A stretch of DNA of 28,376 bases from a virus. This document shows positions 4,630-26,562 of this stretch, one piece after another. The stretch covers positions 1 to 28,376 of the IMG/VR virus record IMGVR_UViG_3300048876_000001. The stretch is one strand, 5' to 3'. Below the pieces are notes generated by a model. It was not told the DNA's origin, ran no database searches, and saw nothing but the letters and a program-made list of their open reading frames with translations. Made by a program: the position numbers and the translations under genes. Numbering within the stretch: position 1 is the first letter of the stretch; each line of letters opens with the position of its first letter.

Positions 4630-7455
4630 TTACTTAATGCCGCCCGTGAAGGTGCCCCGGGTGAAGGTTACAACCCCGGTGGTTGGGTCTGCCGCTCCGT
4701 ATGCCACTGTAGCGGGGACGGTGATTGTCAAAGGTGCCACAGTGCTCAAGTCTTGTGCTGAGTTTCCAAAGCGGTTGAAGGACTGAAACTTCAGGTATAT
4801 AGTCTTGCCCGTCCAACTCGGGTCATACGTATACTTGAAGACTGCGTCATCAAGCCTGAGAAACTGAGAGCCTAACTCATGGAAGATGCTCGTGGTGCCC
4901 ATGAGTCCACGGCGGATATAAGTGCCCGCTGTGTATTGGTCAAGCCCCGTCATAGCACAAGAAGAGTAAGAGATAATCTCAAGCCCCGTGCCGCTGCCCG
5001 TGGAGCTGCAAAGAGCACAAAGGGTGGTGCCGCTGTCCGCGTCCGCTGTCGTGCCGGACTCCAAAGCGGCACTCCCCGTGGGGAGGTTGACAATCATCGT
5101 GTCCGCCGTGTCCGGGTCTGTGGTGCCCCCGGAGAAGGCTGCCGCTAAGACACCAAGCCGGGCTGCGTTCTCAATGGTCCCAATCTGCTGATACTTCACC
5201 CCGTCTTGAGAGGCATGGACATTGCATCCGCCCCAATCCTCTGAGAGTCCAAAGGCCCCCATCCACAGTTGATTCTGATAGAAACCACTCAGCCGTTGGG
5301 TTGCATTAAAGACCACAACGTCCGTGGTGCTTGGGTCCGCGTATTGACTAACCGGAGCTGCCGGACCTGAGACACCTTTGTTGTTGATAGTGGGCTGCTG
5401 GACTCCAAAGATGAAGTCCTCAGCCGTCACGTCTATCGTCCCGTCCGGGTTGTCCACGGTCTTAATGATGCGGGCCGGTTGGTTCCAAAGCTGGAGTGTG
5501 TTTGCGCTCACCGGTGCCCATGCGCTTGTGGTGGTCAAGCTGATAATGTCCATCGGCTCCAAGTGGGATTGCCGGAAAGACAACGTGAATTGGTATTGAT
5601 TCCGTATGTACACATTCCGCTTGACGCGCATTACGGCGGCAAACGTGGCCGCTGGTAGTGTGGTGATGAAGTCCCACGTCTGCGGGTCTTCAATGCGCTC
5701 ACCGTACCTATTGATGGCCGCTTGGTCTGACTCCGGGGTGACCTCGGGTGAGTATTGATTCCCCCGGTTGCTCCAAGAGACTTGGACGGTGTTGAATGCG
5801 TCTTGCCACGCCTTTGGCTCTGAGATTTTAACCGGGGTCTTGCCGCCCTTCGGGGCAATGAAGTCTGAGTCATCTAACTCCGCTGCAAAGACCGTGGGTG
5901 CCGTCCACGTGGCACCATTGGCACCTGCTGATGTGTCGCCATACGGTGCAAGCTTCATCAAGCCCTCAGACATAAAGGCCGCACACATCCCCGCTTCAAG
6001 CCACTTGCCAATGAGAGAGGCCGCCGTATCTTGCCGATCAATGACCGGGCTGATGAAGAAGTTATTGGCCGCAAACCACGCGGTTGCTGTGTTATCCGTG
6101 ATGACGTGTGCCGGGCCTGCTACGGGCCGGATGTACGCTTGGGCATTGTTGCCGCTGTGTCCCGCGTTGCCGCTGCCCCACGTTCCAAATTGCCCGTTGT
6201 CTATTGCGGACACGGGGAAAGGAATTTTACCCCGGCCCAGGCCCCACACGGGATTACTCAAGACCTGGAGGACGCATTGGACGGGGTTGCAATCCGGGAT
6301 GCCTCCGCCCCAAGCGTCCGCTGTCAAGACCTCAAACAAGTTTTGTTGAAGCTGCCCGCTGTATCCCATGTCCATCGGCGAGTAACAGACAAGGGCAATG
6401 CCCGGGTATCCCAAAGATGCGGAGGGATAATTGCTCTCTAGCAAGGCCCAAGGTGCCTGCCCGGGGGTGCCTTCTAGCAGCGTGAAGGCCAAGGAAGACG
6501 GGGTCCCGGCTGGAAGGGCAGAGCTGTTGTCCAGGTTGTACGTCATCATGACTTCTGTGTCTACGTCTCCCGGGGCGAAGGTGTACTTCGCTTCACGGAC
6601 AACCGTCACCGTGATTGTTGTCCCGGAGAGTGTTGAATAGTACGAGCCGGAGTCCACACTGTACGTCCCCGTGACCGTGGGGGTGCCGCTCACTCTGCGG
6701 AGAGCCGTGCCATTGGCAATTGCGCCAATCGTGCCGGTGCTGTAATAGATGACCCCATCATCCGCCGTGAAGGGCAGGTTGCCGGGGATGGACACGCTGA
6801 GGCCGGACGGGATGAGGGCCTTCAACTGCTTGGTGATGGTCTTCAAAGAGTACGTATACGAGACGATCACCGTGGTGCCATTGTCCGCCGTACTGAAGTA
6901 ATAGTTGTTGCTTGTGTCCACGGAGTATGTGCCCTGTGCCAACGCTGCCCCGGACACATACGGCACTTGCTGGAAGGGGACTATTAAGTCCGTTGCCAGC
7001 ACCGTGGCACTTGGCGCACCAAGGTCATTGTAAGAAGTGCTGAGAGGCACCAAATAGGCAACCCCGTGGTCCCCGGTCATGAAGGCCGCGTTGGTTGGTG
7101 TGTACTTCGGGATGGTCCCCGTGATGACGTATGACTCATTGGTCACGTTGTTGCGCAACCATGACTGACCGCTCCACACATCCCCAATGCCAAGGATGCC
7201 ACTGCCACCGTCACAGAGGGCCGCAATCACGTCCGCGCTGTACAGCAATTGCAAGCCGTTCTTGCCCCCGCCAAAGCCCTTGCCGCCGCTTGTGGGTGCG
7301 TTGCGAGACTCAAAGCCGTCCACCCAAATGATTGACTGTTGTACGCGGAACTTCCCCATACCTGCGGGCACACAGAAGCCTAAGACGCTCTGATTGACTT
7401 GCGCACCATTGATGCGCGTTGGTCCCGCTGTCTGAGGGCCAAATATCTGAGCCAT
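4630..7455 (-). CDS. J-like tail tip / host-specificity protein
   Basis: A 941 aa protein following the NlpC/P60 gene, where siphophages encode lambda J or the gene transfer agent megatron (g15). The N-terminal ~60 residues resemble the hub-binding start of such proteins (GPQTAGPTRINGAQVNQS). The middle contains NPVWGLG and, around residues 600-650, the RIIKTVDNPDGTIDVTAEDF motif typical of the hub/FNIII-like core of J proteins. The C-terminal part is beta-rich. J-type proteins form the central tip that contacts the receptor and opens for DNA. The ATG at 7455 overlaps the upstream TAA (TAATG). The open frame extends 51 codons further upstream, but that stretch is antisense-like. Shorter than RcGTA g15. 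Confidence 0.8.
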   Translation of the reverse strand: MAQIFGPQTAGPTRINGAQVNQSVLGFCVPAGMGKFRVQQSIIWVDGFESRNAPTSGGKGFGGGKNGLQLLYSADVIAALCDGGSGILGIGDVWSGQSWLRNNVTNESYVITGTIPKYTPTNAAFMTGDHGVAYLVPLSTSYNDLGAPSATVLATDLIVPFQQVPYVSGAALAQGTYSVDTSNNYYFSTADNGTTVIVSYTYSLKTITKQLKALIPSGLSVSIPGNLPFTADDGVIYYSTGTIGAIANGTALRRVSGTPTVTGTYSVDSGSYYSTLSGTTITVTVVREAKYTFAPGDVDTEVMMTYNLDNSSALPAGTPSSLAFTLLEGTPGQAPWALLESNYPSASLGYPGIALVCYSPMDMGYSGQLQQNLFEVLTADAWGGGIPDCNPVQCVLQVLSNPVWGLGRGKIPFPVSAIDNGQFGTWGSGNAGHSGNNAQAYIRPVAGPAHVITDNTATAWFAANNFFISPVIDRQDTAASLIGKWLEAGMCAAFMSEGLMKLAPYGDTSAGANGATWTAPTVFAAELDDSDFIAPKGGKTPVKISEPKAWQDAFNTVQVSWSNRGNQYSPEVTPESDQAAINRYGERIEDPQTWDFITTLPAATFAAVMRVKRNVYIRNQYQFTLSFRQSHLEPMDIISLTTTSAWAPVSANTLQLWNQPARIIKTVDNPDGTIDVTAEDFIFGVQQPTINNKGVSGPAAPVSQYADPSTTDVVVFNATQRLSGFYQNQLWMGAFGLSEDWGGCNVHASQDGVKYQQIGTIENAARLGVLAAAFSGGTTDPDTADTMIVNLPTGSAALESGTTADADSGTTLCALCSSTGSGTGLEIISYSSCAMTGLDQYTAGTYIRRGLMGTTSIFHELGSQFLRLDDAVFKYTYDPSWTGKTIYLKFQSFNRFGNSAQDLSTVAPLTITVPATVAYGAADPTTGVVTFTRGTFTGGIK

Positions 7456-7937
7456 TAGAAGCCCCCTTTGCAATATGCATCTTGCAACGTGAAGAAACAC
7501 CGGACGGTGCCTTTGGTGTACCAACGCTCCGTCAACCGTGGTGCCTTGGTGCCGTGTGTCCCGCTGACTCCATGGCGTAGCTCCGCTTGGATGACGTACT
7601 CCGGCCACGTCACGATGATGCCCGCATGGGCCATGGCGAGGCCCAACTTATAAGCCACAAGGTCACCCGGCTTTGCTTCTGACTCGGGGACCTCGCGGAA
7701 GAATTTCAATATCAAATCCACGTACTCCGTGGAGGCTTGATGCTGTGCAACCTGGAGGCTATAGTCAACGGGCAGCTCCACCACGGGGACCAAGCCCAAG
7801 GCCCGGTACACTCCGTATATAAGCTGCCCGCAATCCGTCCCAACGGTCTTCAAACAGCTCCACCCACGGTACGGCGTACCTTGCCATGCCTTAGCCTCAG
7901 TGACCACGGCCACGCGTTGTGTGTCTGTCAATCCCAT
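7455..7937 (-). CDS. NlpC/P60 tail peptidoglycan peptidase
   Basis: A 160 aa NlpC/P60-family cysteine peptidase, the counterpart of lambda K (C-terminal part) and RcGTA g14. Visible catalytic elements: GTDCGQLIYGVYRALGL with Cys36 at the head of the active-site helix, and AMAHAGIIV with His104 on the beta-sheet, preceded by the family's PGDLVAY segment at 90-96. Such enzymes cleave cell-wall peptides at the tail tip during DNA entry. The start at 7937 has GGAG five bases upstream. A longer open frame to 8048 is rejected because it lies inside the DUF2163 gene. It sits between the hub and J-like genes. This is the only obvious wall hydrolase in the window. Confidence 0.85.
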   Translation of the reverse strand: MGLTDTQRVAVVTEAKAWQGTPYRGWSCLKTVGTDCGQLIYGVYRALGLVPVVELPVDYSLQVAQHQASTEYVDLILKFFREVPESEAKPGDLVAYKLGLAMAHAGIIVTWPEYVIQAELRHGVSGTHGTKAPRLTERWYTKGTVRCFFTLQDAYCKGGF

Positions 7938-7947
7938 GGTGTCTCCA

Positions 7948-8895
7948 TTACATTGCTGATGACGGTGCCGGTGTAAACGGCGTGCCGCCAAAGCGGGTCT
8001 TGAAATTGTTTGTCTCTGCTGTGCCGTTGGCCCGTAGTGTGCCCGCACAAGTTGTCAGAGTCTTGTCACAGCCCTTGATGACCGCGAACGTGTCACCGGC
8101 AGCCACAGGCAAGAGCCAAGGGACCGTCATGCTCAGCGTCCCGCTTGCATTCAGCTTCACCGTCTGACTCAGCCCGGCATTTGCTCCCGTAAGACACGTC
8201 ACCACTCCCTGTGCAAAGTACCCCGCCGCTTGAGGGAAGGCCGCCACCGGGCTGAGCACATACTGCGTGCTTCCCGTTGCTGCCGTGAAGTCCACGGTGA
8301 AGTTGGCCGCGCTGAGTCCACAGTTGCCGTCCGCGAAACTCCAAGGGCAATTGCTCTGCAAAAGACGTGAAGGCACTTTGAGGTTGAGAAGAAAGAAAGG
8401 GTCAGCGCAATCAAATTGCAGAAGGTTCATGTCAAGCACAGGCCGGGTGGTGATGGTGCCCTGAAACTTTGTCTCAAAGACCTGGACACCGCCGTATTGT
8501 CCAAGCGGCATGTACGCGGCGTACACCCACACCGTGGCTCCGTCAAAAAGGTGATTAAACGCGGCATTGAGTATGCCTATGCTGAGGCCCGGGTACATGG
8601 CTCCCATCTGCGGTATACAGCTCAGAGACATGGTATTGCTTTTGCACTTGGAGTCAGCCTCAGACGTTATCTTTCCCCGGCTCCAAACGCCATAGCTCAC
8701 GGACTTAAACGTCACGGCAACCCCGGCCACGGGAGACAGCGCAATGGGGACCGTGATGTCCCACTGTCCGTCCGTGGCGTACAACGTCTCCCCCGTGGGC
8801 AGACTGATAGCGAAGCACTGAGCCATGTGACACGTGGGGTTGCTGTCCCACCACGCCAAAGCCGCTGAGAGTGTTGGCCCAATCATCCGCTTCAT
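7948..8895 (-). CDS. Tail hub protein, DUF2163/phage BR0599 family
   Basis: A 315 aa protein with the hallmarks of DUF2163 (TIGR02218; RcGTA g13). The N-terminus has the PTLSAALAWWDSNPTCHMAQCF start. A late region contains Cys183/Cys192 (NCPWSFADGNC) and Cys276/Cys283 (GCDKTLTTC), and the C-terminus ends in FGGTPFTPAPSS, matching the family's F-GG-P-F-x-P signature. In RcGTA and in the related lambda L protein the conserved cysteines hold an iron-sulfur cluster. The same is inferred here. It should form the ring between the distal tail protein and the J-like tip. The start overlaps the zinc-ribbon gene stop (ATGA), and the stop is 10 bases before the peptidase start, leaving room for the ribosome site. 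Confidence 0.85.
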   Translation of the reverse strand: MKRMIGPTLSAALAWWDSNPTCHMAQCFAISLPTGETLYATDGQWDITVPIALSPVAGVAVTFKSVSYGVWSRGKITSEADSKCKSNTMSLSCIPQMGAMYPGLSIGILNAAFNHLFDGATVWVYAAYMPLGQYGGVQVFETKFQGTITTRPVLDMNLLQFDCADPFFLLNLKVPSRLLQSNCPWSFADGNCGLSAANFTVDFTAATGSTQYVLSPVAAFPQAAGYFAQGVVTCLTGANAGLSQTVKLNASGTLSMTVPWLLPVAAGDTFAVIKGCDKTLTTCAGTLRANGTAETNNFKTRFGGTPFTPAPSSAM

Positions 8896-9101
8896 AGCGT
8901 CACCCGCATTTTCTTCAGCAAAGCAATGTCAGACGGGGTGAAGGCTCCGTCCACGTCCTCCCCGGCAACCACTCCCCGGCCCGGGACATACGCTAGACTC
9001 ACCCCACATCGGGAGTTGGCACAGATGATGATGTCCTCATCCGTCCGCCGCACGTGGGAGCCACAATGCGGGCAACCAAAGTTTGAGATGTAAGTCCTCA
9101 T
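8892..9101 (-). CDS. Small zinc-ribbon protein in the tail operon
   Basis: A 69 aa protein with Cys10-x2-Cys13 and Cys27-x4-Cys32 (CPHC, CANSRC), typical of a zinc ribbon, then a helical C-terminus (PSDIALLKKMRV). It is wedged between the DUF2460 and DUF2163 tail-tip genes with ATGA overlaps on both sides, so it is clearly translated with them. No RcGTA counterpart sits at this place. It may be a tail assembly factor or a small virion part. The function is not known. Confidence 0.75.
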   Translation of the reverse strand: MRTYISNFGCPHCGSHVRRTDEDIIICANSRCGVSLAYVPGRGVVAGEDVDGAFTPSDIALLKKMRVTL

Positions 9102-9925
9102 GCAAACACACTCTCAAAGTCAATTGAGCCGCATGACCACAACCACCCGCCGCTGTTCTTAGACACACGGCCCAAGTCCTTCAGGGTGTCATCTGTGAAT
9201 TGGCAAAGGTATTGAAACTGCCCTTGCCATGTGAGCACCGCGTTTAGAGGCGGGGCAAATGGGGCAAGGGCACCGCTCACCCATTGTTGAAAGGTGACAA
9301 CTCCCGTGGTAGAAACAACGGCAACAATGCCCGTGCCCGTTGTGGGGGTGACCGCGTAAGTGTTTAGGGCATTCCCGTTGAGAAACACAGCCACGTTGCT
9401 GACGTTCTGGAGAATGTCCACACCCATGCCAATGGCCCGGGCAAGCTGGAATTGATTAGACGCTCCGTCCCCCTTCAGGCCCATGGGTGCTGCCGCCCCC
9501 AGGGTCACGTTGAGCATCAAGCTTTGGTCAGCGTCCGGGCCTCCGTCCGGGTTTTCCACCGCGCTGTCATTGGGGTCCGTAAACAAGAAGAAGCCCGCCC
9601 CGCCGCACGTTGCCATGAACAACCCAAGGAAGTTTTGCAAGACACTGAATTGCACAGACTCCCCACCAAGGACCATGTTGAGGTCAAGGCTGAAGTCCCA
9701 CGTTGGGTATGGCTTGAAGCTAATGGCACTCCGGCCCCGGCCACTTGCGGGCTTTTGCACACTGCTGTTGAAGCTCGGGGTCTTGTGAAAGCCACTCTTC
9801 ACAAGGCTCCACGGGATGCCAAGGTCACACACGGGGTATGCCCCTGCCGGGGCGGTGCTTCCTCCGCTGCCGGAGACAAGCCGTGAGGACCAATACGGGG
9901 GCACGTAGGGTGGTATGAATGTCAT
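9098..9925 (-). CDS. Distal tail protein, DUF2460 family
   Basis: A 275 aa protein of the DUF2460/TIGR02217 type (RcGTA g12). Visible marks: an N-terminal Pro/Tyr-rich segment (PPYVPPYWSSRLVSGSGGS), a central GFFLFTDPND motif at ~111-120 (the family's F-D-P-x-D) and a C-terminal beta segment with YLCQFTDDTL and SIDFESVF. These proteins cap the tail tube and connect it to the hub. It opens the tail-tip group of the leftward operon. The start overlaps the stop of the 38 aa membrane peptide (ATGA), and the stop overlaps the zinc-ribbon start. Its nearest functional partners (tape measure, tube) lie on the opposite strand 10 kb away. Confidence 0.85.
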   Translation of the reverse strand: MTFIPPYVPPYWSSRLVSGSGGSTAPAGAYPVCDLGIPWSLVKSGFHKTPSFNSSVQKPASGRGRSAISFKPYPTWDFSLDLNMVLGGESVQFSVLQNFLGLFMATCGGAGFFLFTDPNDSAVENPDGGPDADQSLMLNVTLGAAAPMGLKGDGASNQFQLARAIGMGVDILQNVSNVAVFLNGNALNTYAVTPTTGTGIVAVVSTTGVVTFQQWVSGALAPFAPPLNAVLTWQGQFQYLCQFTDDTLKDLGRVSKNSGGWLWSCGSIDFESVFA

Positions 9926-10038
9926 TTAAGTCTCCGGGGCTTGGTCAAAACGGTTAATAGCACAGCAGCAAGAAGCACAAGGGCAATCACTACACCGTCA
10001 TGGTCCATGAGCCACAGAAAGACATACTCTTTCGTCAC
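9922..10038 (-). CDS. Membrane micropeptide, 38 aa
   Basis: The frame starts at a GTG overlapping the stop of the 31 aa peptide (GTGA) and ends overlapping the DUF2460 start (ATGA). The peptide has an acidic N-terminal part, a single hydrophobic span (VVIALVLLAAVLLTVL at about 17-32) and a basic end (TKPRRLK). That suggests an N-out/C-in single-pass protein. No family is recognised. Overlaps on both sides and the clean transmembrane profile support it. Confidence 0.55.
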   Translation of the reverse strand: MTKEYVFLWLMDHDGVVIALVLLAAVLLTVLTKPRRLK

Positions 10039-10130
10039 AAGAGCCTCCAAAGAGCACGCACTGCGACACACAGCCAAGCGTCAAACACAACCATAAAAGC
10101 CAATATCTTCAAGATGGGGTGTTGATTCAT
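10035..10130 (-). CDS. Membrane micropeptide, 31 aa
   Basis: A 31-codon frame starting at the ATG that overlaps the stop of the M50-like protease gene (ATGA) and ending in GTGA with the next micropeptide. It is hydrophobic over about residues 6-23 (ILKILAFMVVFDAWLCVAV) with Arg near the C-terminus. It is probably a single membrane span. Two membrane micropeptides directly after an intramembrane-type protease could be its partners or substrates. That is speculation from position only. Confidence 0.55.
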   Translation of the reverse strand: MNQHPILKILAFMVVFDAWLCVAVRALWRLL

Positions 10131-10495
10131 CGTGCGCACCGTGCCCGCGTTTTTAGTTCTGTCATCTTATTGAGGCACCACAATGCACGGCTCCCATCTG
10201 AGCCACGGAGCGGCAGAAGGTTGCACACGCCAAAGCAAAGGTTTGCCGTGAAGAAAGCCCCACCACCGGGGAAGGTCAACAGAGCAAAGGCCAAGTTGAT
10301 ACCCGGACCGGCAAGCGACACCATGAGGTCATCGAACGGGGGGCCTTGCTCTCGCACGATGCCAACGCCACGCCACCCAATGAAGACCCGCTTGACCTGG
10401 ATGCCAAAAAAGACCGCTGTTAAATAGTGGGCGGCCTCATGGACAAGGACCGCAAAAAGAACGTTGAGAATGAGCAAAGAAGCTTCCATATTCAC
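10127..10495 (-). CDS. Miniature M50/site-2-type metalloprotease
   Basis: A 122 aa hydrophobic protein with both signatures of the site-2 protease (M50) core: HEAAH at residues 19-23 inside the first hydrophobic helix (zinc ligands His19 and His23, catalytic Glu20) and NLLPLRGSDG at about 92-101, with Asp100 as third ligand, inside a later hydrophobic stretch (LAGPGINLAFALL between them). M50 proteases cut proteins within membranes, often to release regulators. It is near the minimum size for the fold. The start is the GTG at 10495 (overlapping the upstream TGA) or the ATG two codons on. It is coupled to the membrane micropeptides and tail genes. Activity is inferred from motifs. Confidence 0.7.
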   Translation of the reverse strand: MNMEASLLILNVLFAVLVHEAAHYLTAVFFGIQVKRVFIGWRGVGIVREQGPPFDDLMVSLAGPGINLAFALLTFPGGGAFFTANLCFGVCNLLPLRGSDGSRALWCLNKMTELKTRARCAR

Positions 10496-10701
10496 CGGCC
10501 TTGGTATGGGACTGGACTCTCCAGATTCATCTCTTCAGTGATGCGGGACTGAAGGGCAATACGCTCTTCCCGGATTGCGTCCGTTTGGCCTTGGATGTAG
10601 ACACGTGTCACGGCCAAGGCCAATAGCTCCCGCTTGAGCGGGGACAGCGGGTCAATGACACAACGCGGGAAGTCATTCAGCGGGTTTTCCAGGTTGTACA
10701 T
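10492..10701 (-). CDS. Hypothetical protein, 69 aa
   Basis: The start is the ATG at 10701, with GGAGG about seven bases upstream lying inside the end of the preceding gene. The upstream continuation of the frame looks non-coding. The N-terminal third is Pro/Asp-rich (ENPLNDFPRCVIDPLSP). The rest is one long charged helix (ELLALAVTRVYIQGQ, AIREERIALQSRITEEM) that could form a coiled coil. Its stop overlaps the protease start (GTGA). No family is recognised. Confidence 0.65.
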   Translation of the reverse strand: MYNLENPLNDFPRCVIDPLSPLKRELLALAVTRVYIQGQTDAIREERIALQSRITEEMNLESPVPYQGR

Positions 10702-10843
10702 CAGATGCCTCCAGTTCGGTAACGTGGGTGTCATCGAAGTGCTTGACCTTGGGCCAATGGCTGTTGATGTACGCAACGGCCCGGAGCATCCGGCACCGGT
10801 CCGTACAGGCACCGGAGCGGATAAGCAGCTCAGTTACTTTCAT
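10673..10843 (-). CDS. Hypothetical protein, 56 aa
   Basis: The ATG at 10843 has GGAAG five bases upstream, within the end of the FlbD-like gene (14-nt overlap). It overlaps the next gene by 29 bases. The protein begins KVTELLIRSGACTDRC and has a short helical middle (MLRAVAYINSHW) and an acidic C-terminus. No family is recognised. Position and ribosome site support translation in the leftward operon. Confidence 0.55.
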   Translation of the reverse strand: MKVTELLIRSGACTDRCRMLRAVAYINSHWPKVKHFDDTHVTELEASDVQPGKPAE

Positions 10844-11039
10844 AAAACTTCCGAATGATGCCGGTGACATATGTGTATGAGCGGTTGATGTTGTGTGCCG
10901 TGCCGCTTGTCATGCGGACAATGCAGAGGTCATGGTCCTTTGGGTCTTGCTCAACGGACTCAATCAAGTCCGGCTCAATTGCAACGAGGACGGTGTCATT
11001 GCCAACTTCAAGGCTTACGGACTTCATGAGTGCAATCAC
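10830..11039 (-). CDS. FlbD-like small protein, 69 aa
   Basis: The start is the GTG at 11039, which overlaps the upstream stop (GTGA) and has a strong GGAGG seven bases upstream. An ATG four codons on has no ribosome site. The pattern VLVAIEPDLIESVEQDP, then a beta strand CIVRMTSGTAHNI, then a helix TYVTGIIRKFYES resembles the FlbD family (family pattern: asparagine-proline-aspartate-leucine-isoleucine, strand, helix). FlbD-like proteins occur in flagellar operons and in phages. Their phage role is not defined. The resemblance is by eye and could be a coincidence of a common small beta-beta-alpha shape. Confidence 0.6.
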   Translation of the reverse strand: MIALMKSVSLEVGNDTVLVAIEPDLIESVEQDPKDHDLCIVRMTSGTAHNINRSYTYVTGIIRKFYESN

Positions 11040-11623
11040 TTCGTCACCTCCGTGGTGAGGTACTTCACGAGGATTTCCGCTTGAGCGGACATAGCAGCGG
11101 ACCAAACAGCGGACTCAGCAGCGGACCAAACAGCGGACTCAGCAGCGGACCAAGCAGCGGACATAGCAGCGGACGCAGCAGCGGACGCAGCAGCGGACCA
11201 AGCAGCGGACCTAGCAGCGGACGCAGCAGCGGACTCAGCAGCGGACATAGCAGCGGACGCAGCAGCGGACCAAGCAGCGGACCTTTGCAGCGCCGTTATT
11301 GTCCCGTTTGCGAAGTCCCGGGCGGCCTGAATTGCGAGTCTTGGCCGGTCATCGTTGGGGTAATACTTGAGCCACTCCGGCAAAGCCATCTCAGCGAAGT
11401 CAGCGGCCAAGAAGCGGGCAACCTTCTCACAGTCCTCCGCCGTTGCTGTTAGTGCCCACAGAGCGTCCTCAATACCGTTGGTCTTCAAGATGGTCAGTAT
11501 GTTAATGGGCTCGTCAGTGCCATACGAAAGGCCAAGAGCCTCACGGAGGACGCGGTAACGCGGCGTGCAAGCGCAGGCGCTACGCAACAGCGCAAACGTG
11601 GTAGTAAGGACAATCTTTTTCAT
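11036..11623 (-). CDS. Ala-rich SAAx-repeat protein, Imm5-like
   Basis: A 195 aa protein. Residues ~35-105 match the front of a widespread small family: GIEDALWALTATAED, an acidic helical part, then NDDRPRLAIQAARDFANG. Residues ~115-182 are 17 copies of a 4-residue unit Ser-Ala-Ala-x, x being Trp, Ala, Met, Glu or Arg, with Val for one Ala in two copies. The end, QAEILVKYLTTEV, is also typical. Such proteins are often annotated as Imm5-type putative immunity proteins, and similar ones are common in phages. Their function there is unknown. The repeat should form one long Ala-rich helix or helical stack. The start ATG has no obvious ribosome site but abuts a possible upstream small frame. It ends coupled to the FlbD-like gene. 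Confidence 0.65.
   Translation of the reverse strand: MKKIVLTTTFALLRSACACTPRYRVLREALGLSYGTDEPINILTILKTNGIEDALWALTATAEDCEKVARFLAADFAEMALPEWLKYYPNDDRPRLAIQAARDFANGTITALQRSAAWSAAASAAMSAAESAAASAARSAAWSAAASAAASAAMSAAWSAAESAVWSAAESAVWSAAMSAQAEILVKYLTTEVTK
11084..11287. repeat. 12-bp tandem repeat, 17 units
   Basis: On the + strand the unit is AGCGGACnnAGC with the variable bases mainly in positions 8-9; 16 full copies plus a partial one run without interruption. It lies wholly inside the Imm5-like gene and encodes Ser-Ala-Ala-x. Units of 12 bases can be gained or lost without changing frame, so length variation between related phages is expected. Confidence 0.9.
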
Positions 11624-11785
11624 TTAGCGGGCTGCTTTTCTGCGATTGTGCCGTGAGCTAAGTGAGCGGTCACGCTGTCCCCGGGTGCGGGGCCTGTGTC
11701 CGCCGTTAGCGTGCAAAGGTACCGGGATGCCACGCGTGGGTTGGTTTGCGCCGATGCTGAGCAAGTCAATAAGAAGCCAATCCAT
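11624..11785 (-). CDS. Doubtful small frame before the repeat protein, 53 aa
   Basis: The frame has an ATG preceded by AGGGGG four bases upstream, and its TAA directly abuts the repeat protein ATG. Its Arg/Ser-rich product looks poorly coding. The frame shifted by one base reads more like protein: GFLLTCSASAQ, a signal-peptide-like end, then a polar segment ending EKQPAK. It also has a TGA overlapping the next ATG in the ATGA style used elsewhere. That frame has no standard start codon. Either one is translated, or the region is a leader. Confidence 0.25.
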   Translation of the reverse strand: MDWLLIDLLSIGANQPTRGIPVPLHANGGHRPRTRGQRDRSLSSRHNRRKAAR

Positions 11786-11794
11786 ACTTCCCCC

Positions 11795-12055
11795 TTAAAC
11801 GTTGTAGAAGACCCATTTCTCCGGGGTGCATTCGATACTTCCGCACCGTATCTGTACTTCCCCGGCTGCCTTCTGCCGCGTAAGACGGACGATTGTGGCG
11901 AAGTCCTCAGCGAGTCCCGCGCGTTCGATACGTTGTAAGCCTCTGTGTGCTAACTGACGGGCATTAAATTCCGATATTCCCAAACGCTTGGCGATGTCTG
12001 CGTATTCCAAAGTTGTTCCCCTTCTGTGGTTGATGTATCCACTGTATGACGACAC
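11795..12055 (-). CDS. Sigma-70 region-4-like HTH protein, 86 aa
   Basis: The first gene of the leftward operon. Residues ~14-38, TTLEYADIAKRLGISEFNARQL, followed by HRGLQRIERA, closely resemble the helix-turn-helix of sigma factor region 4, which contacts the -35 element. No region 2 is visible, so it cannot be a complete sigma factor. Stand-alone region-4-like proteins can act as activators, anti-sigma binders or late regulators. The start is the GTG at 12055, immediately after an in-frame TGA. A TTG 14 codons on has a better ribosome site (AAGGGG) but would cut into the helix preamble. The C-terminus (QIRCGSIECTPEKW) is short and polar. It is a good candidate regulator of the divergent operons. 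Confidence 0.6.
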   Translation of the reverse strand: MSSYSGYINHRRGTTLEYADIAKRLGISEFNARQLAHRGLQRIERAGLAEDFATIVRLTRQKAAGEVQIRCGSIECTPEKWVFYNV

Positions 12056-12126
12056 TCAATAACGCCACCATAGCACTACAGTCGTATCCGTGTGACACCG
12101 AAAAAAGAAATACTCAGACTGTCACA
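12056..12126. promoter_or_regulatory. Divergent start region with inverted repeat
   Basis: Leftward and rightward gene sets start here only 36 bases apart, so both promoters must overlap this region or the gene starts. TGTGACA (12091-12097) and TGTCACA (12120-12126) are perfect 7-bp inverted arms separated by 22 bases, about two helical turns between arms, as in operators bound by dimeric regulators. No convincing -35/-10 pair is visible on either strand, which would fit a phage-specific promoter. Confidence 0.4.
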
Positions 12127-12430
12127 AAGCCCCGTGGATTCAGGTAGTGTGGCAATTGTTACCGAGAAGTGGCGTTATGAAGTGGCGTCAGAAGGGAGCA
12201 TGACCGTGCAAGTGACGAAAGTACCGCCCGGAGCAGCAAAGGGCAGCGGCCCATATAGACCAAGAGGCGCGGCGAAGTCCGCAAAGAACACGTACAACCG
12301 TCTGTTTCATTCAGCGGCCACGAGACGCGGGTCTGGCCGCACTGTACCGGGCGGCATACCGGAGGGCGTTGTATTCGCCCGTGAAGAGGCTGCCGCAGGC
12401 AGCGGGCTTGCGGAAGATTGTCACCGCTAA
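12092..12430 (+). CDS. Hypothetical basic protein, 112 aa
   Basis: The frame opens at a GTG with no ribosome site. An internal ATG at 12200 is preceded by AAGGGAG at very short spacing. Codons in the second half look used (a KSAKNTYNRLF segment). Basic and Gly/Pro-rich (GPYRPRGAAKSAKN). It overlaps the next frame by 62 bases, which is unusual here. First in the rightward set, where a small terminase subunit would often be, but no DNA-binding HTH is seen, so that role is not claimed. Confidence 0.35.
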   Translation: MTPKKEILRLSQSPVDSGSVAIVTEKWRYEVASEGSMTVQVTKVPPGAAKGSGPYRPRGAAKSAKNTYNRLFHSAATRRGSGRTVPGGIPEGVVFAREEAAAGSGLAEDCHR

Positions 12431-12638
12431 AGAGGCGGACAATTTTCTCTCTCGTGTTTTGTTGCCCTCTGAAAGCCGTGGCCCACGCCCTTGGTGCTCA
12501 GCTCCACGCGTTCTGCTTGACGCAATACCGGACAACCCGGAGCTGTTTGTTTGTAATGACAGACGGCATTTTATGGACCGCTTTGACCCGCTTGTCACAT
12601 TTGAGGCGGTGATGGCGCAAGAGGATACGAATGCCTAA
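12369..12638 (+). CDS. Hypothetical protein, 89 aa
   Basis: The only available start is a TTG at 12369 with GGAGG three bases away, closer than normal. Codon choice over the last 70 codons looks genuine (an IPDNPELFVCNDRRHFMDRFDPLVTFEAVM segment). It overlaps the next gene by 8 bases, with that gene's ribosome site (GAGG) inside its end. It could belong to the packaging module by position. No family recognised. Confidence 0.45.
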   Translation: MYSPVKRLPQAAGLRKIVTAKEADNFLSRVLLPSESRGPRPWCSAPRVLLDAIPDNPELFVCNDRRHFMDRFDPLVTFEAVMAQEDTNA

Positions 12639-22254: not shown

Positions 22255-24672
22255 ATGGCGCAACCTGTATGGGTCTTATCCGTTGACCTCCAAACAAAAA
22301 CGGCCACATTCACAACCGGCTTGGCTGATGCTGCCAAGCAAGCCCGTGGGTCTTTCTCTGAGATTAAAGGCGGAGCCGGGGAGATGGGCCGGGAGGTGGG
22401 GTACTCCACTGGAGAGGCCCGTCACTCCGTCATGATGTTGGGTGAAGAGTTTGGTGTCCACTTGCCACGCTCTTTGACCACGTTCATTGCCGGTCTTGGT
22501 CCGATTGGTCCGGCTCTTGAGGCTGCCTTCCCGTTCTTGGCAGTCATCTTGGGTGCCACGCTCTTGATTGAGCATTTGGTGAAGATGCGGGAGGCCGGGG
22601 AGAAGCTGACAGAGGACCAAGTCAAGTTTGGCACCGCTGTACAAAACGCGTGGAACCAACTGGACCAAAAAATCCTGCAATCACAAATCCGGGCGGATGA
22701 GCTGAAGAATAACCACCTTGCTGCCCTTCAGCATCAGCTTGAGCTGATTGACAAACAGAGTCTCAGTGAGTTGGTCAAGAGTTTTGAGGAAGTTGCCAAG
22801 GCCGCTGACGTGGTCATGAAGGACCTTGAAGGTCATTGGTACAGCTTTGGCAAAGGCTCCGAGGGGGCGAAGCACGCGCTTGAGTCCTTCCAGAATGACT
22901 ACACCGCGTTACTTGCCAAAGGGAAAGGCGAAGAAGCATCCGGGCTGTTGCATGGCACGTTAGCGCAAGCGGAGAAGATTCAAGAGGCTCTCAAGAACAA
23001 ACAGACGTATGACTCCACGTCTGACATGGATGACGCCACATATCAGAAGGGCATTGCAGCGGCCAAGACCCTCCAGGGCATCCACGTGGAGACGGGACTC
23101 ACACTCACCAAGCAGATTGAGGCCCAACAGAATCTCGTCCAAGCCTTGAACGCACAAGTGGGCAGTGAAGAGCGGATTGCCGCGTTAAAAAAGCTGGAGG
23201 GCGGCAACGCCACACAGCAAGAGGGCAACGCTGAGGCCGCCCGTGCATCAGCGGCAGCAAGGGCAGCAGCGGCAAGTCAGTCCCGCATAAGCCAAGACGG
23301 ACTCAACGCAAGCAAGGCTGTGGGTGAGGCCGCATTAACCGTGACGCGGGCCACGCTAGAAGAGCGGCTCAGCTTTGAGATTGACTTTGCCGCCCGTGAG
23401 CGGGAGGTCCAGTTAAAGACCAACGCGGCGGAAATAGCTGCATTAGACAAAGGCGGGAAGGACTACGCAAACCAACTCAAGGCCCTTCAGGAAAAGACCC
23501 TGGAGATTAAGGCGGAGTACAACGCCAAGGTCATTGAGGACACGGCCAAGACAGCCACGCAAATAAATGCCCGGGACCTTCAGGACTTTGAGGCGGGGCA
23601 GCGGCAAAAGATTGATGCCACGGGACGCGGGGACACGGAACGGTTAGCGGCTCTTAACAACGCATTGAAAGAGGCTGAGGCCCGGAACATCCAAGACACA
23701 CAATTTTATCGGGACTTGCTTGTCCAGCGTGTCCAGGTAACCCGGCAAATGACGGAGGATGAGTCAAAGCTACGGGCTGAGGCCGGGAAGGAAGAGGCGG
23801 ACAATGAGCTGAAGAGCGGGGAGCTGATACTCTCTGCCCGTAAGCAAGCCGTCACGCTCGAAGAGAGTACACGGCATCAGAGCATTGCCCGCCGCATGTC
23901 TGATGAGATTCAGGCAGCAAACTTTGAGTTTCTCTTGAAGCAAGCGGCCATTGAAAAAGAAGCGGCGGCCCTGGACAAAGGCGGCAAGGACTATGAGAAC
24001 AAGCTGAAGGCCCTCCAGGACAAGGAAAAGCAGCTCATTCAACAGCACGAAAATGAAGTCACCAACATCAAGGAAAAGGCTGAGGAAGAGCGGAACACCC
24101 GCATCCTTGGTGCAGAGACCCGGATGCAAGACAGCCTTGCAAGCGGCTTGACTCAGTCCCTCATGAGGCATCAGACGTGGGCAAGGACGCTCATTAGCCT
24201 AGGGGACCAAGTGGTGACGGGCATGATTCAGAATGCCTTGAAGAGCATCCTTGCTGATGACATGGACAAAGAGCGGGACGCGGCCAAGGCAGCTCGAAAA
24301 GGATGGCTTGCCGGGGCACAGATGCCCTTCCCGGCCAACCTTGTTATGGCTCCCACATTGGCTGCGTTGGGCTTCACGTCCGTCATGGCTTTTGCGGGCG
24401 GCACGGACAGCGTCCCGGGCATTGGTCACACGGACAACGTCCCAACCATGTTGACCCCTGGTGAAGGTGTTGTCCCGGGCGGAGTTATGGACAACCTCCG
24501 CAACATGGCAAAGGACGGGGGCTTCAATCAGCGGCCACATGCCACGGTCCACGTGCATATGACCAACCACGTCAACACTATTGACGGGGACGGCATGGAA
24601 GCCACTCTGGACAAGCACGCGGAACAAGTACAGCGGCACGTTGAAAAGTCGTTGAGAAAGATGAGCCACTAA
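22255..24672 (+). CDS. Tape measure protein
   Basis: An 805 aa, largely helical protein that sets tail length and leaves through the tail tip. Residues ~75-110 hold a hydrophobic stretch (FIAGLGPIGPALEAAFPFLAVILG) and a second lies near 700-720 (LVMAPTLAALGFTSVMAFAGG). The rest is coiled coil, with a duplicated segment (see repeat). The C-terminal GGTDSVPGIGHTDNVPTMLTPGEGVVPGG is the familiar tape-measure tail motif. GAGGA precedes the ATG. Its TAA is followed directly by the ATG of the primase gene, not by distal tail genes as usual. The chaperone genes lie just upstream. Confidence 0.88.
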   Translation: MAQPVWVLSVDLQTKTATFTTGLADAAKQARGSFSEIKGGAGEMGREVGYSTGEARHSVMMLGEEFGVHLPRSLTTFIAGLGPIGPALEAAFPFLAVILGATLLIEHLVKMREAGEKLTEDQVKFGTAVQNAWNQLDQKILQSQIRADELKNNHLAALQHQLELIDKQSLSELVKSFEEVAKAADVVMKDLEGHWYSFGKGSEGAKHALESFQNDYTALLAKGKGEEASGLLHGTLAQAEKIQEALKNKQTYDSTSDMDDATYQKGIAAAKTLQGIHVETGLTLTKQIEAQQNLVQALNAQVGSEERIAALKKLEGGNATQQEGNAEAARASAAARAAAASQSRISQDGLNASKAVGEAALTVTRATLEERLSFEIDFAAREREVQLKTNAAEIAALDKGGKDYANQLKALQEKTLEIKAEYNAKVIEDTAKTATQINARDLQDFEAGQRQKIDATGRGDTERLAALNNALKEAEARNIQDTQFYRDLLVQRVQVTRQMTEDESKLRAEAGKEEADNELKSGELILSARKQAVTLEESTRHQSIARRMSDEIQAANFEFLLKQAAIEKEAAALDKGGKDYENKLKALQDKEKQLIQQHENEVTNIKEKAEEERNTRILGAETRMQDSLASGLTQSLMRHQTWARTLISLGDQVVTGMIQNALKSILADDMDKERDAAKAARKGWLAGAQMPFPANLVMAPTLAALGFTSVMAFAGGTDSVPGIGHTDNVPTMLTPGEGVVPGGVMDNLRNMAKDGGFNQRPHATVHVHMTNHVNTIDGDGMEATLDKHAEQVQRHVEKSLRKMSH
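23431..24030 (+). repeat. Duplicated coiled-coil segment in tape measure
   Basis: Two copies, 23431-23496 and 23959-24030, encode nearly the same segment: ALDKGGKDYANQLKALQEK and ALDKGGKDYENKLKALQDK, 176 codons apart. The bases differ at many synonymous sites, so this is an old duplication. It may mark the repeating unit by which the tail length grew. Confidence 0.7.
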
Positions 24673-26562
24673 ATGCCGATGCTTGATATTGCCCTTGAAT
24701 GCGCTGCCCGTGGTTGGCTCGTGTTTCCGTGTTGGCCCAAGTCAAAGAAGCCCATGACAACAGCGGGCTTTAAAGACGCGAGTGCTGACCCATTGCAGAT
24801 AGCAGAGTGGTGGCACCGTGAGCCAAACGCTAACGTGGCGATTGCCACAGGGCCTAGTGGGCTGTGTGTCTTGGACATTGACCACGGGCTTGGGGAGGAA
24901 GTCTCTGCGCTCCACGCTTGGGTGTTCACCCATGACTTGCCCCATACCTATACAGTACGGACAGGAAGACGCCCGGAGTTTGGTGCCCAAATGTATTACA
25001 GCGGTGCGGGCTTGAAGTCAACCGGCTGGAATCTTTTAGACGTGGACATGAGTGGCGATATACGTTGCTCAACGGGTTATGTCATGGCAGCGGGTAGCAT
25101 TCACCCCGACACTGGCTTACCCTATGAGGTCATCTGTGATGTGCCCGTTGTGCCGGTGCCGGATTACGTCAAGACGCTGACTGTGAAAGCGCAAGAGCGC
25201 ACAGCGGCGGACAGCGTGGACGATGAAACGGCAGACGCGTGGAAGACGTGGCTTTTCGGGTACGCGGACTTTCACCAATTAGTCACACGTGACTTTGAGA
25301 AGCGGGCGGATAACGGGTGGTGGTTGGGCATTGAGTGCCCGTGGGTCGCTGAGCACTCAAGCGGCCCCGGTGTGGTCAGCTCAACCGTGCTTGGGATACT
25401 GGCCGGGAAGATTGCCTTTGAGTGTTCGCATGGTACTTGCAAGGCTTTGAAGCGGGGCACAAGTGCCTTCAAGGAAGAGATGGCCCGGTTGCATGGCGAG
25501 TATTACTTTGAGGACGTGGCCGGTGAGCCGGGTGCTGACCCCATAGTTGTCATTGGGACGGGACTGCCCGCTCAGAAAAAGCCCACGGCTGATTGGCGCA
25601 CGATGTTCCACAGCAAGAAGGATGTTGTGGAGTGCGCTCCGCCGTCATTCCTGATTGACCAATTTTTATCTCATGAGTCCATCTGTGCGATTGCAGCTCC
25701 AGTGGCACAGAGAAAGAGCCTGATTGCGTTGAATATGGCTCACTCGCTCATCACGGGGAAGCCGTTGTTTGGTTGTTTGGAGGTGTTGGCGCAACCAAGC
25801 CGCGTGCTTTACCTGTGTCCTGAAATGGGCCTCATATCAATGAGCAACAGGGTCAAACGGATTGGGCTGACGGACTACCTTGGGGAGACGCTGTTTATCA
25901 GGACAATGAACCTTGAAGATATTGACCTTGATGACATCCCGGACGATGCAATTGAAGGCAGCGTCTTGATTGTTGATACAGCCATCCGCTTCATGAAGGG
26001 TGAAGAGAATAGCGCAACGGCGGTGAAAGACTTCAGCAAGACGCTGTTTCGTACTCAGAAGCGGCAAGGACCGCGTGGGGCAATCGTGGCGCTTTATCAC
26101 AGCCCAAAGGCCACAAAGGGGGCGTTTGAGCTGACCCTTGAAAACTGTATGCGTGGCTCGGGTGAGCTTGGTGCCGCCATCACGGATGCGCATGGCACGC
26201 GGTTGAATCTGGCAGACGGCTTGACGGAGTACACAGCCACGAGTTACATCAGCCACGTGAAGAGCCGGGACTATAAGGGGCTTGAAGCGTTTGAGGCTGA
26301 TTGCAACGAAGAGACGTGCTTAATGACCAAGGTTGGTGAGGCCGGTGTCAAAGCGGTGCTCAACGTAAAGCAAGGCGGATTCAAGGCTAACGCAGACGGC
26401 ATGGACGCTGCCGGTGATGCTTTGATACAGGCAAACCCCGAGATGACGCTGCCACAGTATGAGGCTCTGTTTGCTGAGCATGGCATCTCGCGGAAGAAGT
26501 CTTGGATTAGCCAACACCGGGGCAAACTGCTTGGAAAAGGCTCAAAACACACAGAAAGCTAA
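24673..26562 (+). CDS. Primase-polymerase with C-terminal RepA-like ATPase
   Basis: A 629 aa replication protein. Residues ~5-160 form a bifunctional primase-polymerase domain: KPMTTAGFKDASADP, the metal-binding LDIDHG (Asp68, Asp70) and GYVMAAGSIHPDTG at 135-148. Residues ~330-520 resemble a RecA/RepA-fold ATPase: Walker-A-like ICAIAAPVAQRKSL (Lys348, Ser349; the usual glycines are missing), Walker B SVLIVDTA with Asp435 and a following GAIVALYHSPK strand. A short helical tail (~560-629) could bind DNA. Together these suggest a primase-helicase that primes phage replication. Its ATG abuts the tape-measure TAA. The site just upstream is weak (GAGAAAG). No other replication gene is visible, and no origin is proven. 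Confidence 0.82.
   Translation: MPMLDIALECAARGWLVFPCWPKSKKPMTTAGFKDASADPLQIAEWWHREPNANVAIATGPSGLCVLDIDHGLGEEVSALHAWVFTHDLPHTYTVRTGRRPEFGAQMYYSGAGLKSTGWNLLDVDMSGDIRCSTGYVMAAGSIHPDTGLPYEVICDVPVVPVPDYVKTLTVKAQERTAADSVDDETADAWKTWLFGYADFHQLVTRDFEKRADNGWWLGIECPWVAEHSSGPGVVSSTVLGILAGKIAFECSHGTCKALKRGTSAFKEEMARLHGEYYFEDVAGEPGADPIVVIGTGLPAQKKPTADWRTMFHSKKDVVECAPPSFLIDQFLSHESICAIAAPVAQRKSLIALNMAHSLITGKPLFGCLEVLAQPSRVLYLCPEMGLISMSNRVKRIGLTDYLGETLFIRTMNLEDIDLDDIPDDAIEGSVLIVDTAIRFMKGEENSATAVKDFSKTLFRTQKRQGPRGAIVALYHSPKATKGAFELTLENCMRGSGELGAAITDAHGTRLNLADGLTEYTATSYISHVKSRDYKGLEAFEADCNEETCLMTKVGEAGVKAVLNVKQGGFKANADGMDAAGDALIQANPEMTLPQYEALFAEHGISRKKSWISQHRGKLLGKGSKHTES

What the first reader, a model, noticed from the sequence alone, without database searches (positions are those of the whole stretch)
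10127..10495. Minimal M50/site-2-type protease in a tail operon
HEAAH and GSDG motifs in a 122 aa hydrophobic protein give the complete M50 metal site at near-minimal size. Intramembrane proteases are rare in phages. It is coupled to membrane micropeptides and follows a sigma-region-4-like gene in the same operon, suggesting regulated proteolysis of a host anti-sigma factor or membrane receptor.
Basis: partly seen in the sequence, partly recalled or inferred. Interest (0 to 1): 0.7.

Follow-up and report, generated by a model that had tools for sequence, protein, structure and literature searches.

The report
Miniature phage membrane-cutting protease (M50)
A soil phage carries a real, stripped-down version (122 residues) of the proteases that cut proteins inside membranes, and very distant phages carry the same miniature, so it looks like a small phage tool whose target is still unknown.

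Summary
The minus-strand ORF 10495-10127 (122 aa) matches Pfam Peptidase_M50 (E 3e-10, above the curated cut-off). Its AlphaFold2 model is very confident (pLDDT 95.9, pTM 0.85). The best PDB fold matches are the site-2 proteases SpoIVFB and MjS2P. HEAAH, GPxxN and NLLPxxxSDG-type motifs are intact, and little else is present: only the three-helix catalytic core, without the extra helices, PDZ or CBS domains of known family members.

It is not unique. A DNA-signature scan found four more core-only M50s in unrelated terminase-bearing phage contigs. All five read S-D-G where 29 other M50s read L/M/F/H-D-G, and they group together in a tree (support 93/88; 69/88 with that column masked). The closest M50s in about 600 Bacillota and Bacteroidota genomes lie in intact frames of 167 codons or more. 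None of seven IMG/VR records of the phage's own relatives has the gene.

Function is not settled. The gene sits in a late tail operon, coupled to two one-helix micropeptides, but the five phages share no neighbouring gene. That favours an autonomous accessory protease acting on host (or co-made) transmembrane helices. The anti-sigma reading has only circumstantial support.

The parts
10127..10495 (-). Minimal M50 (site-2-type) intramembrane metalloprotease, 122 aa: HEAAH 19-23, GPGIN 63-67, NLLPLRGSDG 92-101
   Evidence: PF02163 E 3.2e-10; AF2 pLDDT 95.9, pTM 0.85; Foldseek SpoIVFB 7.7e-5, MjS2P 1.8e-4
10035..10130 (-). 31-aa one-helix micropeptide MNQHPILKILAFMVVFDAWLCVAVRALWRLL; its ATG overlaps the M50 stop (ATGA)
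   Evidence: sequence; KD peak 2.33; no significant likeness to TM1 of cellular M50s
9922..10038 (-). 38-aa one-helix micropeptide MTKEYVFLWLMDHDGVVIALVLLAAVLLTVLTKPRRLK (GTG start), coupled to the preceding peptide (GTGA) and to DUF2460 (ATGA)
   Evidence: sequence; KD peak 2.55
10492..10701 (-). 69-aa soluble protein of unknown function (longest frame runs to 10812), stop overlaps the M50 GTG (GTGA)
   Evidence: no family, no phage record
11795..12055 (-). Sigma-70 region-4-like HTH protein, first gene of the leftward run
   Evidence: PF04545 24.9 bits against a cut-off of 24.1
9098..9925 (-). DUF2460 tail protein, coupled downstream
   Evidence: PF09343 E 3.3e-13
7948..8895 (-). Tail assembly protein of the same operon
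   Evidence: phrog_778 E 3.9e-28
4630..7608 (-). Large J-like tail protein of the same operon
   Evidence: phrog_1101 E 3.5e-48, phrog_31

Best explanation
The gene encodes a genuine M50-family (site-2 protease) intramembrane zinc metalloprotease reduced to its three-helix catalytic core, and it belongs to a phage-borne group of such miniatures. Shown: M50 homology, a confident M50 core fold, an intact motif set, and recurrence in unrelated phages apart from any common neighbour gene. Inferred: His19, His23 and Asp100 bind zinc and Glu20 activates water to cut a substrate helix within the membrane. Without TM1, TM5 and TM6, of which TM1 and TM6 are the proposed substrate gate in SpoIVFB, and without PDZ or CBS domains, it should be little regulated and act on short one-helix substrates with no prior site-1 cut. 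Because it is made with the late tail genes here, the most likely role is an accessory one: clearing host inner-membrane one-helix proteins or peptides (signal-peptide remnants, small regulators, entry factors) during infection. The coupled micropeptides would be its partner, brake or substrate.
For: Pfam M50 above cut-off for the window protein; all five minimal members match PF02163 at E<=0.01. AF2 pLDDT 95.9, pTM 0.85 with helices 3-29 (HEAAH), 53-73 (GPGIN) and 79-93/100-121 (NLLP...DG), and a beta hairpin 34-48. The first six Foldseek PDB hits are all S2Ps. H19, E20, H23, G63, P64, N67, N92, P95, S99, D100, G101 are invariant in the five minimal members. All five contigs carry terminases and share no other neighbour gene in the stretches compared, except that L035 and L037 also share one ORF locus. 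Known S2Ps share a three-TM core with HExxH and LDG (PMC10202637); a cleft between SpoIVFB TMS1 and TMS6 may gate substrate access (PMC9042235).
Against: No activity, substrate or expression data. The model coordinates could not be opened, so metal-site geometry was not measured. The gene is absent from seven IMG/VR records of related phages, so it is dispensable. S99 replaces the usual L/M, with unknown effect. A three-helix core has not been shown to work alone as far as I know.
Confidence: 0.6

Rival explanations
1. Protease and coupled micropeptides form one unit: the 31- and 38-aa one-helix peptides occupy the open active-site cleft (a BofA-like brake), replace the missing gate helices, or are the substrates whose timed cleavage matters, for example in lysis timing.
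For: Start/stop overlaps M50 > 31 aa > 38 aa > DUF2460. BofA TMS2 sits in the SpoIVFB cleft and blocks it (PMC9042235). In the Mu-like phage L046 a 48-aa one-helix peptide is coupled directly upstream of the M50.
Against: One-helix peptides directly adjoin the M50 in only two of five phages and are unrelated in sequence. The 31-aa peptide is no more like M50 TM1 than shuffles of itself (926 of 2000 as high; 38-aa: 139 of 2000). Small membrane ORFs are common in phages.
Confidence: 0.25
2. One reading: regulated proteolysis of a host membrane anti-sigma factor (or receptor), working with the sigma-region-4-like gene of the same operon.
For: Anti-sigma cleavage is a usual job of bacterial S2Ps (PMC10202637); a marginal Sigma70_r4 gene heads the gene run.
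Against: No sigma-like gene among the neighbours scanned in the other phages, and no shared neighbour. No anti-sigma-like protein recognised in the window cluster. The region-4-only protein has no region 2 and may simply be a late-gene regulator.
Confidence: 0.12
3. A captured, decaying fragment or pseudoprotease of a host M50 with no catalytic role.
For: It lacks TM1 and the C-terminal half of SpoIVFB-type proteins; related phages do without it.
Against: Intact frame with tight translational coupling; all catalytic residues kept in five divergent members (about 30% identity) that group together; very confident fold.
Confidence: 0.1
4. Assembly artefact: a bacterial gene or chimeric join in a metagenome contig.
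For: Gene order differs from relatives: there the tape measure is followed directly by DUF2460; here it is followed by the primase, and the tail block is inverted behind the M50 cluster.
Against: The M50 is stop/start-coupled through two peptides to the DUF2460 gene, which is homologous to the relatives'; relative G001 also has genes in reverse orientation upstream of the terminase; the same minimal type occurs on four other terminase-bearing contigs.
Confidence: 0.05

Closest known systems
SpoIVFB (Bacillus subtilis; PDB 8vjl), M50 / S2P group III
   Same: Best sequence and fold match; HExxH, GP, NLLPxxxDG, beta hairpin after the first core helix
   Different: Six TMs plus CBS domain, LDG motif; about 30% identity; the phage protein keeps only the core helices and has SDG
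MjS2P (Methanocaldococcus jannaschii; PDB 3b4r)
   Same: Core fold (TMq 0.71)
   Different: 218 residues modelled against 122; has the flanking helices
RseP (PDB 7w6x, 9j82), M50 group I
   Same: Core motifs; weaker fold match
   Different: PDZ domains and a large insert; cuts anti-sigma RseA after a site-1 cut
Phage M50s in BFVD: A0A6J5SMS1 (184 aa, 'Peptidase M50') and A0A6J5RHB6 (268 aa, 'SpoIVFB Zn-dependent proteases')
   Same: M50 in tailed phages
Four minimal M50s found here: L037 8943-9335, L038 2043-2471, L040 11248-11661, L035 8124-8702 (IMG/VR)
   Same: Core-only M50 region, SDG, phage contigs
   Different: About 28-38% identical; other genome contexts (Mu-like early region, methyltransferase genes, 360-kb contig); L035's start is uncertain and it has a longer C-terminal tail

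Membership tests
Peptidase M50 / site-2 protease | Profile match to PF02163 above the curated cut-off | tested here: met
   40.2 against 27.2 bits, E 3.2e-10
Peptidase M50 / site-2 protease | HExxH in a hydrophobic helix plus NxxPxxxxDG (usually LDG) on another core helix | tested here: met
   HEAAH 19-23, NLLPLRGSDG 92-101; invariant H, E, H, N, P, D, G; residue before DG is S, not L/M
Peptidase M50 / site-2 protease | Three-helix catalytic core fold | tested here: met
   pLDDT 95.9, pTM 0.85; Foldseek SpoIVFB TMq 0.66, MjS2P TMq 0.71
Peptidase M50 / site-2 protease | Zinc bound by His, His, Asp in the right geometry | not testable with these tools
   model coordinates and metal modelling not available; residues are present
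Peptidase M50 / site-2 protease | Proteolytic activity in the membrane | not testable with these tools
   needs experiment
S2P group III (SpoIVFB/MjS2P subtype) | Six TMs with C-terminal CBS domain | tested here: not met
   122 aa, core helices only; no CBS match
S2P group I (RseP subtype) | PDZ domain(s) | tested here: not met
   no PDZ match; RseP equivalogs far below cut-off
Regulated-intramembrane-proteolysis cassette (S2P + anti-sigma + sigma) | Membrane anti-sigma substrate and sigma factor next to the protease | tested here: not met
   only a marginal region-4 protein in the gene run; no anti-sigma-like protein recognised

The most novel reading that the evidence does not exclude
Phages hold their own clade of core-only site-2 proteases (SDG type) that work as three-helix enzymes, with the missing gate helices or the inhibitor supplied in trans by co-translated one-helix micropeptides: a split, self-regulated intramembrane protease used against host membrane proteins.
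Probability: 0.15. Interest if true: 0.8.

Novelty: new variant of a known kind. Interest (0 to 1): 0.52.

Why it matters
If active, it would be the smallest site-2 protease known to me and a natural test of whether the three-helix core alone can cut, given that flanking helices and domains are credited with gating. It would also be a phage enzyme that edits the host inner membrane by proteolysis. I found no paper on phage S2Ps in the library searched. The signature (HExxH, GPxxN, NLLP-SDG, about 120-140 aa) makes the group findable elsewhere.

Tried and rejected
The M50 hits in 'Bacteriophage sp.' faecal records (H1, H2, H4, H7) lie in frames of 186-371 aa on unannotated 'UNVERIFIED' records and look like ordinary bacterial M50s; not counted as phage relatives. 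Terminase scan of GTDB genomes for a provirus or host: none; host unknown. Idea that the 31-aa peptide is the missing TM1 in trans (it begins MNQHP, as some TM1s have HP): a TM1 profile does not favour it over shuffles (two earlier script runs failed). Search for shared neighbours of the five minimal M50s: only the M50 (plus one ORF locus shared by L035 and L037). Paper searches for phage intramembrane proteases or superinfection exclusion by them: nothing relevant.

Full report
1. What is there. The finding's interval holds a minus-strand ORF, 10495 to 10127, of 122 aa. It matches Pfam Peptidase_M50 at E 3.2e-10, 40.2 bits against a cut-off of 27.2. By sequence its best solved relatives are SpoIVFB (E 3.7e-5) and MjS2P (0.025); with a profile of five minimal members they rise to 5.8e-13 and 1.2e-9, and RseP appears. 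No PHROG matches.

2. Anatomy. Stops and starts overlap along the chain: 69-aa protein (10701-10492) GTGA M50; M50 ATGA 31-aa peptide (10130-10035); 31-aa GTGA 38-aa peptide (10038-9922); 38-aa ATGA DUF2460 (9925-9098). Both peptides hold one hydrophobic helix. Further downstream come a small zinc-ribbon-like protein, a tail assembly protein, a minor-tail-like protein, a J-like tail protein and a fibre-like protein. Upstream lie an alanine-rich Imm5-like protein and a Sigma70_r4-like protein at 24.9 bits, just over its cut-off. All run leftward without long gaps, so one transcription unit is plausible; the promoter scan gave no signal above chance.

3. Fold. AlphaFold2 with 15 sequences gives pLDDT 95.9, pTM 0.85: helix 3-29 carrying HEAAH, hairpin strands 34-40 and 43-48, helix 53-73 carrying GPGIN, helices 79-93 and 100-121 separated by the NLLPLRGSDG loop. 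The first six Foldseek PDB hits are SpoIVFB, MjS2P and Aquifex RseP, TMq 0.42-0.71. This is the three-TM catalytic core common to all S2Ps (PMC10202637), with little added.

4. Relatives of the phage. A terminase scan found eight IMG/VR loci on seven contigs, 56-67% identical. None of these contigs has an M50, though several are short fragments. In three longer ones the tape measure is followed at once by DUF2460 and the tail block in the same direction; in the window the tail block is inverted behind the M50 cluster and the tape measure is followed by the primase. The M50 is therefore an accessory gene of this phage. No provirus was found in GTDB genomes, so the host is unknown.

5. Relatives of the protein. 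A DNA signature (HExxH, GPxxN, NLxPxxxxDG with short spacing) scanned over IMG/VR returned six contigs. Four encode further core-only M50s: 130 aa (L037), 142 aa (L038), about 137 aa (L040) and a frame with an uncertain start and a longer C-terminal tail (L035); L036 and L039 are longer M50s. Against whole records the window protein matches the four at E 5e-16 to 6e-7. All four contigs carry a terminase. Contexts differ: a Mu-like early region next to transposase genes (L040/L046), DNA methyltransferase genes (L037), a 360-kb contig (L038) and a region near a tail-spike-like gene (L035). GC runs from 40% to 68%, and the only gene shared with the window is the M50.

6. A separable group. All five minimal members have S before DG; 29 other M50 cores gathered here have L, M, F or H. 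The five form one side of a branch with support 93/88, and 69/88 when that column is masked. Branches are long and the sample was chosen by similarity to the window protein and by spacing, so the clade is likely, not proven. In 300 Bacillota genomes the best matches lie in open frames of about 290 codons; the shortest listed without a stop is 167, and the two shorter ones contain a TGA. In 297 Bacteroidota genomes the shortest listed is 244. Other phyla were not sampled. In BFVD only two viral models match at E<=0.001, 184 and 268 aa.

7. Mechanism. Shown: family, core fold, intact motifs, recurrence in unrelated phages. Inferred: zinc hydrolysis of a helix in the membrane. In SpoIVFB a cleft between TMS1 and TMS6 is thought to gate substrate entry, and BofA's TM helix fills the active-site cleft as an inhibitor (PMC9042235). 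The phage protein lacks TM1, TM5 and TM6, so either its site is open and it cuts small helices without regulation, or other helices, such as the coupled peptides, close it. A profile of cellular TM1 segments did not recognise either peptide. RseP also clears signal peptides from the membrane (abstract of PMC8144685), a job needing no partner and available in every host, which fits a gene found without fixed neighbours. I therefore prefer an autonomous accessory protease over the anti-sigma proposal.

8. Verdict. Real gene, real M50 core, a rare and unusually small phage variant; function open. It is a new variant of a known kind, of moderate interest, rising if the core-only enzyme is shown to be active or to be controlled by its micropeptides.

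Noticed in passing
window 4623-1828 (-); L018 near 6601 (-); L020 near 1912 (+); L022 near 8880 (+): The fibre-like protein downstream of the J-like tail protein begins with an apparent Sec signal peptide (MKTLILLILGLSSAVASAQ), and so do its homologues in three related phages. Unusual for a tail fibre; it may be a secreted phage protein.
   Followed up: partly
window 9098-12631 and 24660-24690 compared with L018, L021, L022: Module rearrangement: the tail block is inverted and lies upstream of the terminase, and the tape measure is followed directly by the primase, unlike in three related phages. Real rearrangement or misassembly not settled.
   Followed up: partly
window 11036-11623 (-), DNA repeats about 11090-11290: Alanine-rich Imm5-like protein with tandem SAAWSAA/SAAESA-type repeats (PF21805 5e-8, phrog_18326 1e-22); function unknown.
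   Followed up: no
L046 7804-7950 and 7947-8360: In a Mu-like phage a 48-aa one-helix peptide is stop/start-coupled directly upstream of a minimal M50.
   Followed up: partly
L036 1590-2174; L039 85-332: Two further IMG/VR contigs carry longer M50s with LDG (194 aa; open frame 187), so phage-contig M50s are not only of the minimal type.
   Followed up: no
window 8892-9101 (-): Small zinc-ribbon-like protein (weak matches to several zinc-finger families) between DUF2460 and the tail assembly gene.
   Followed up: no
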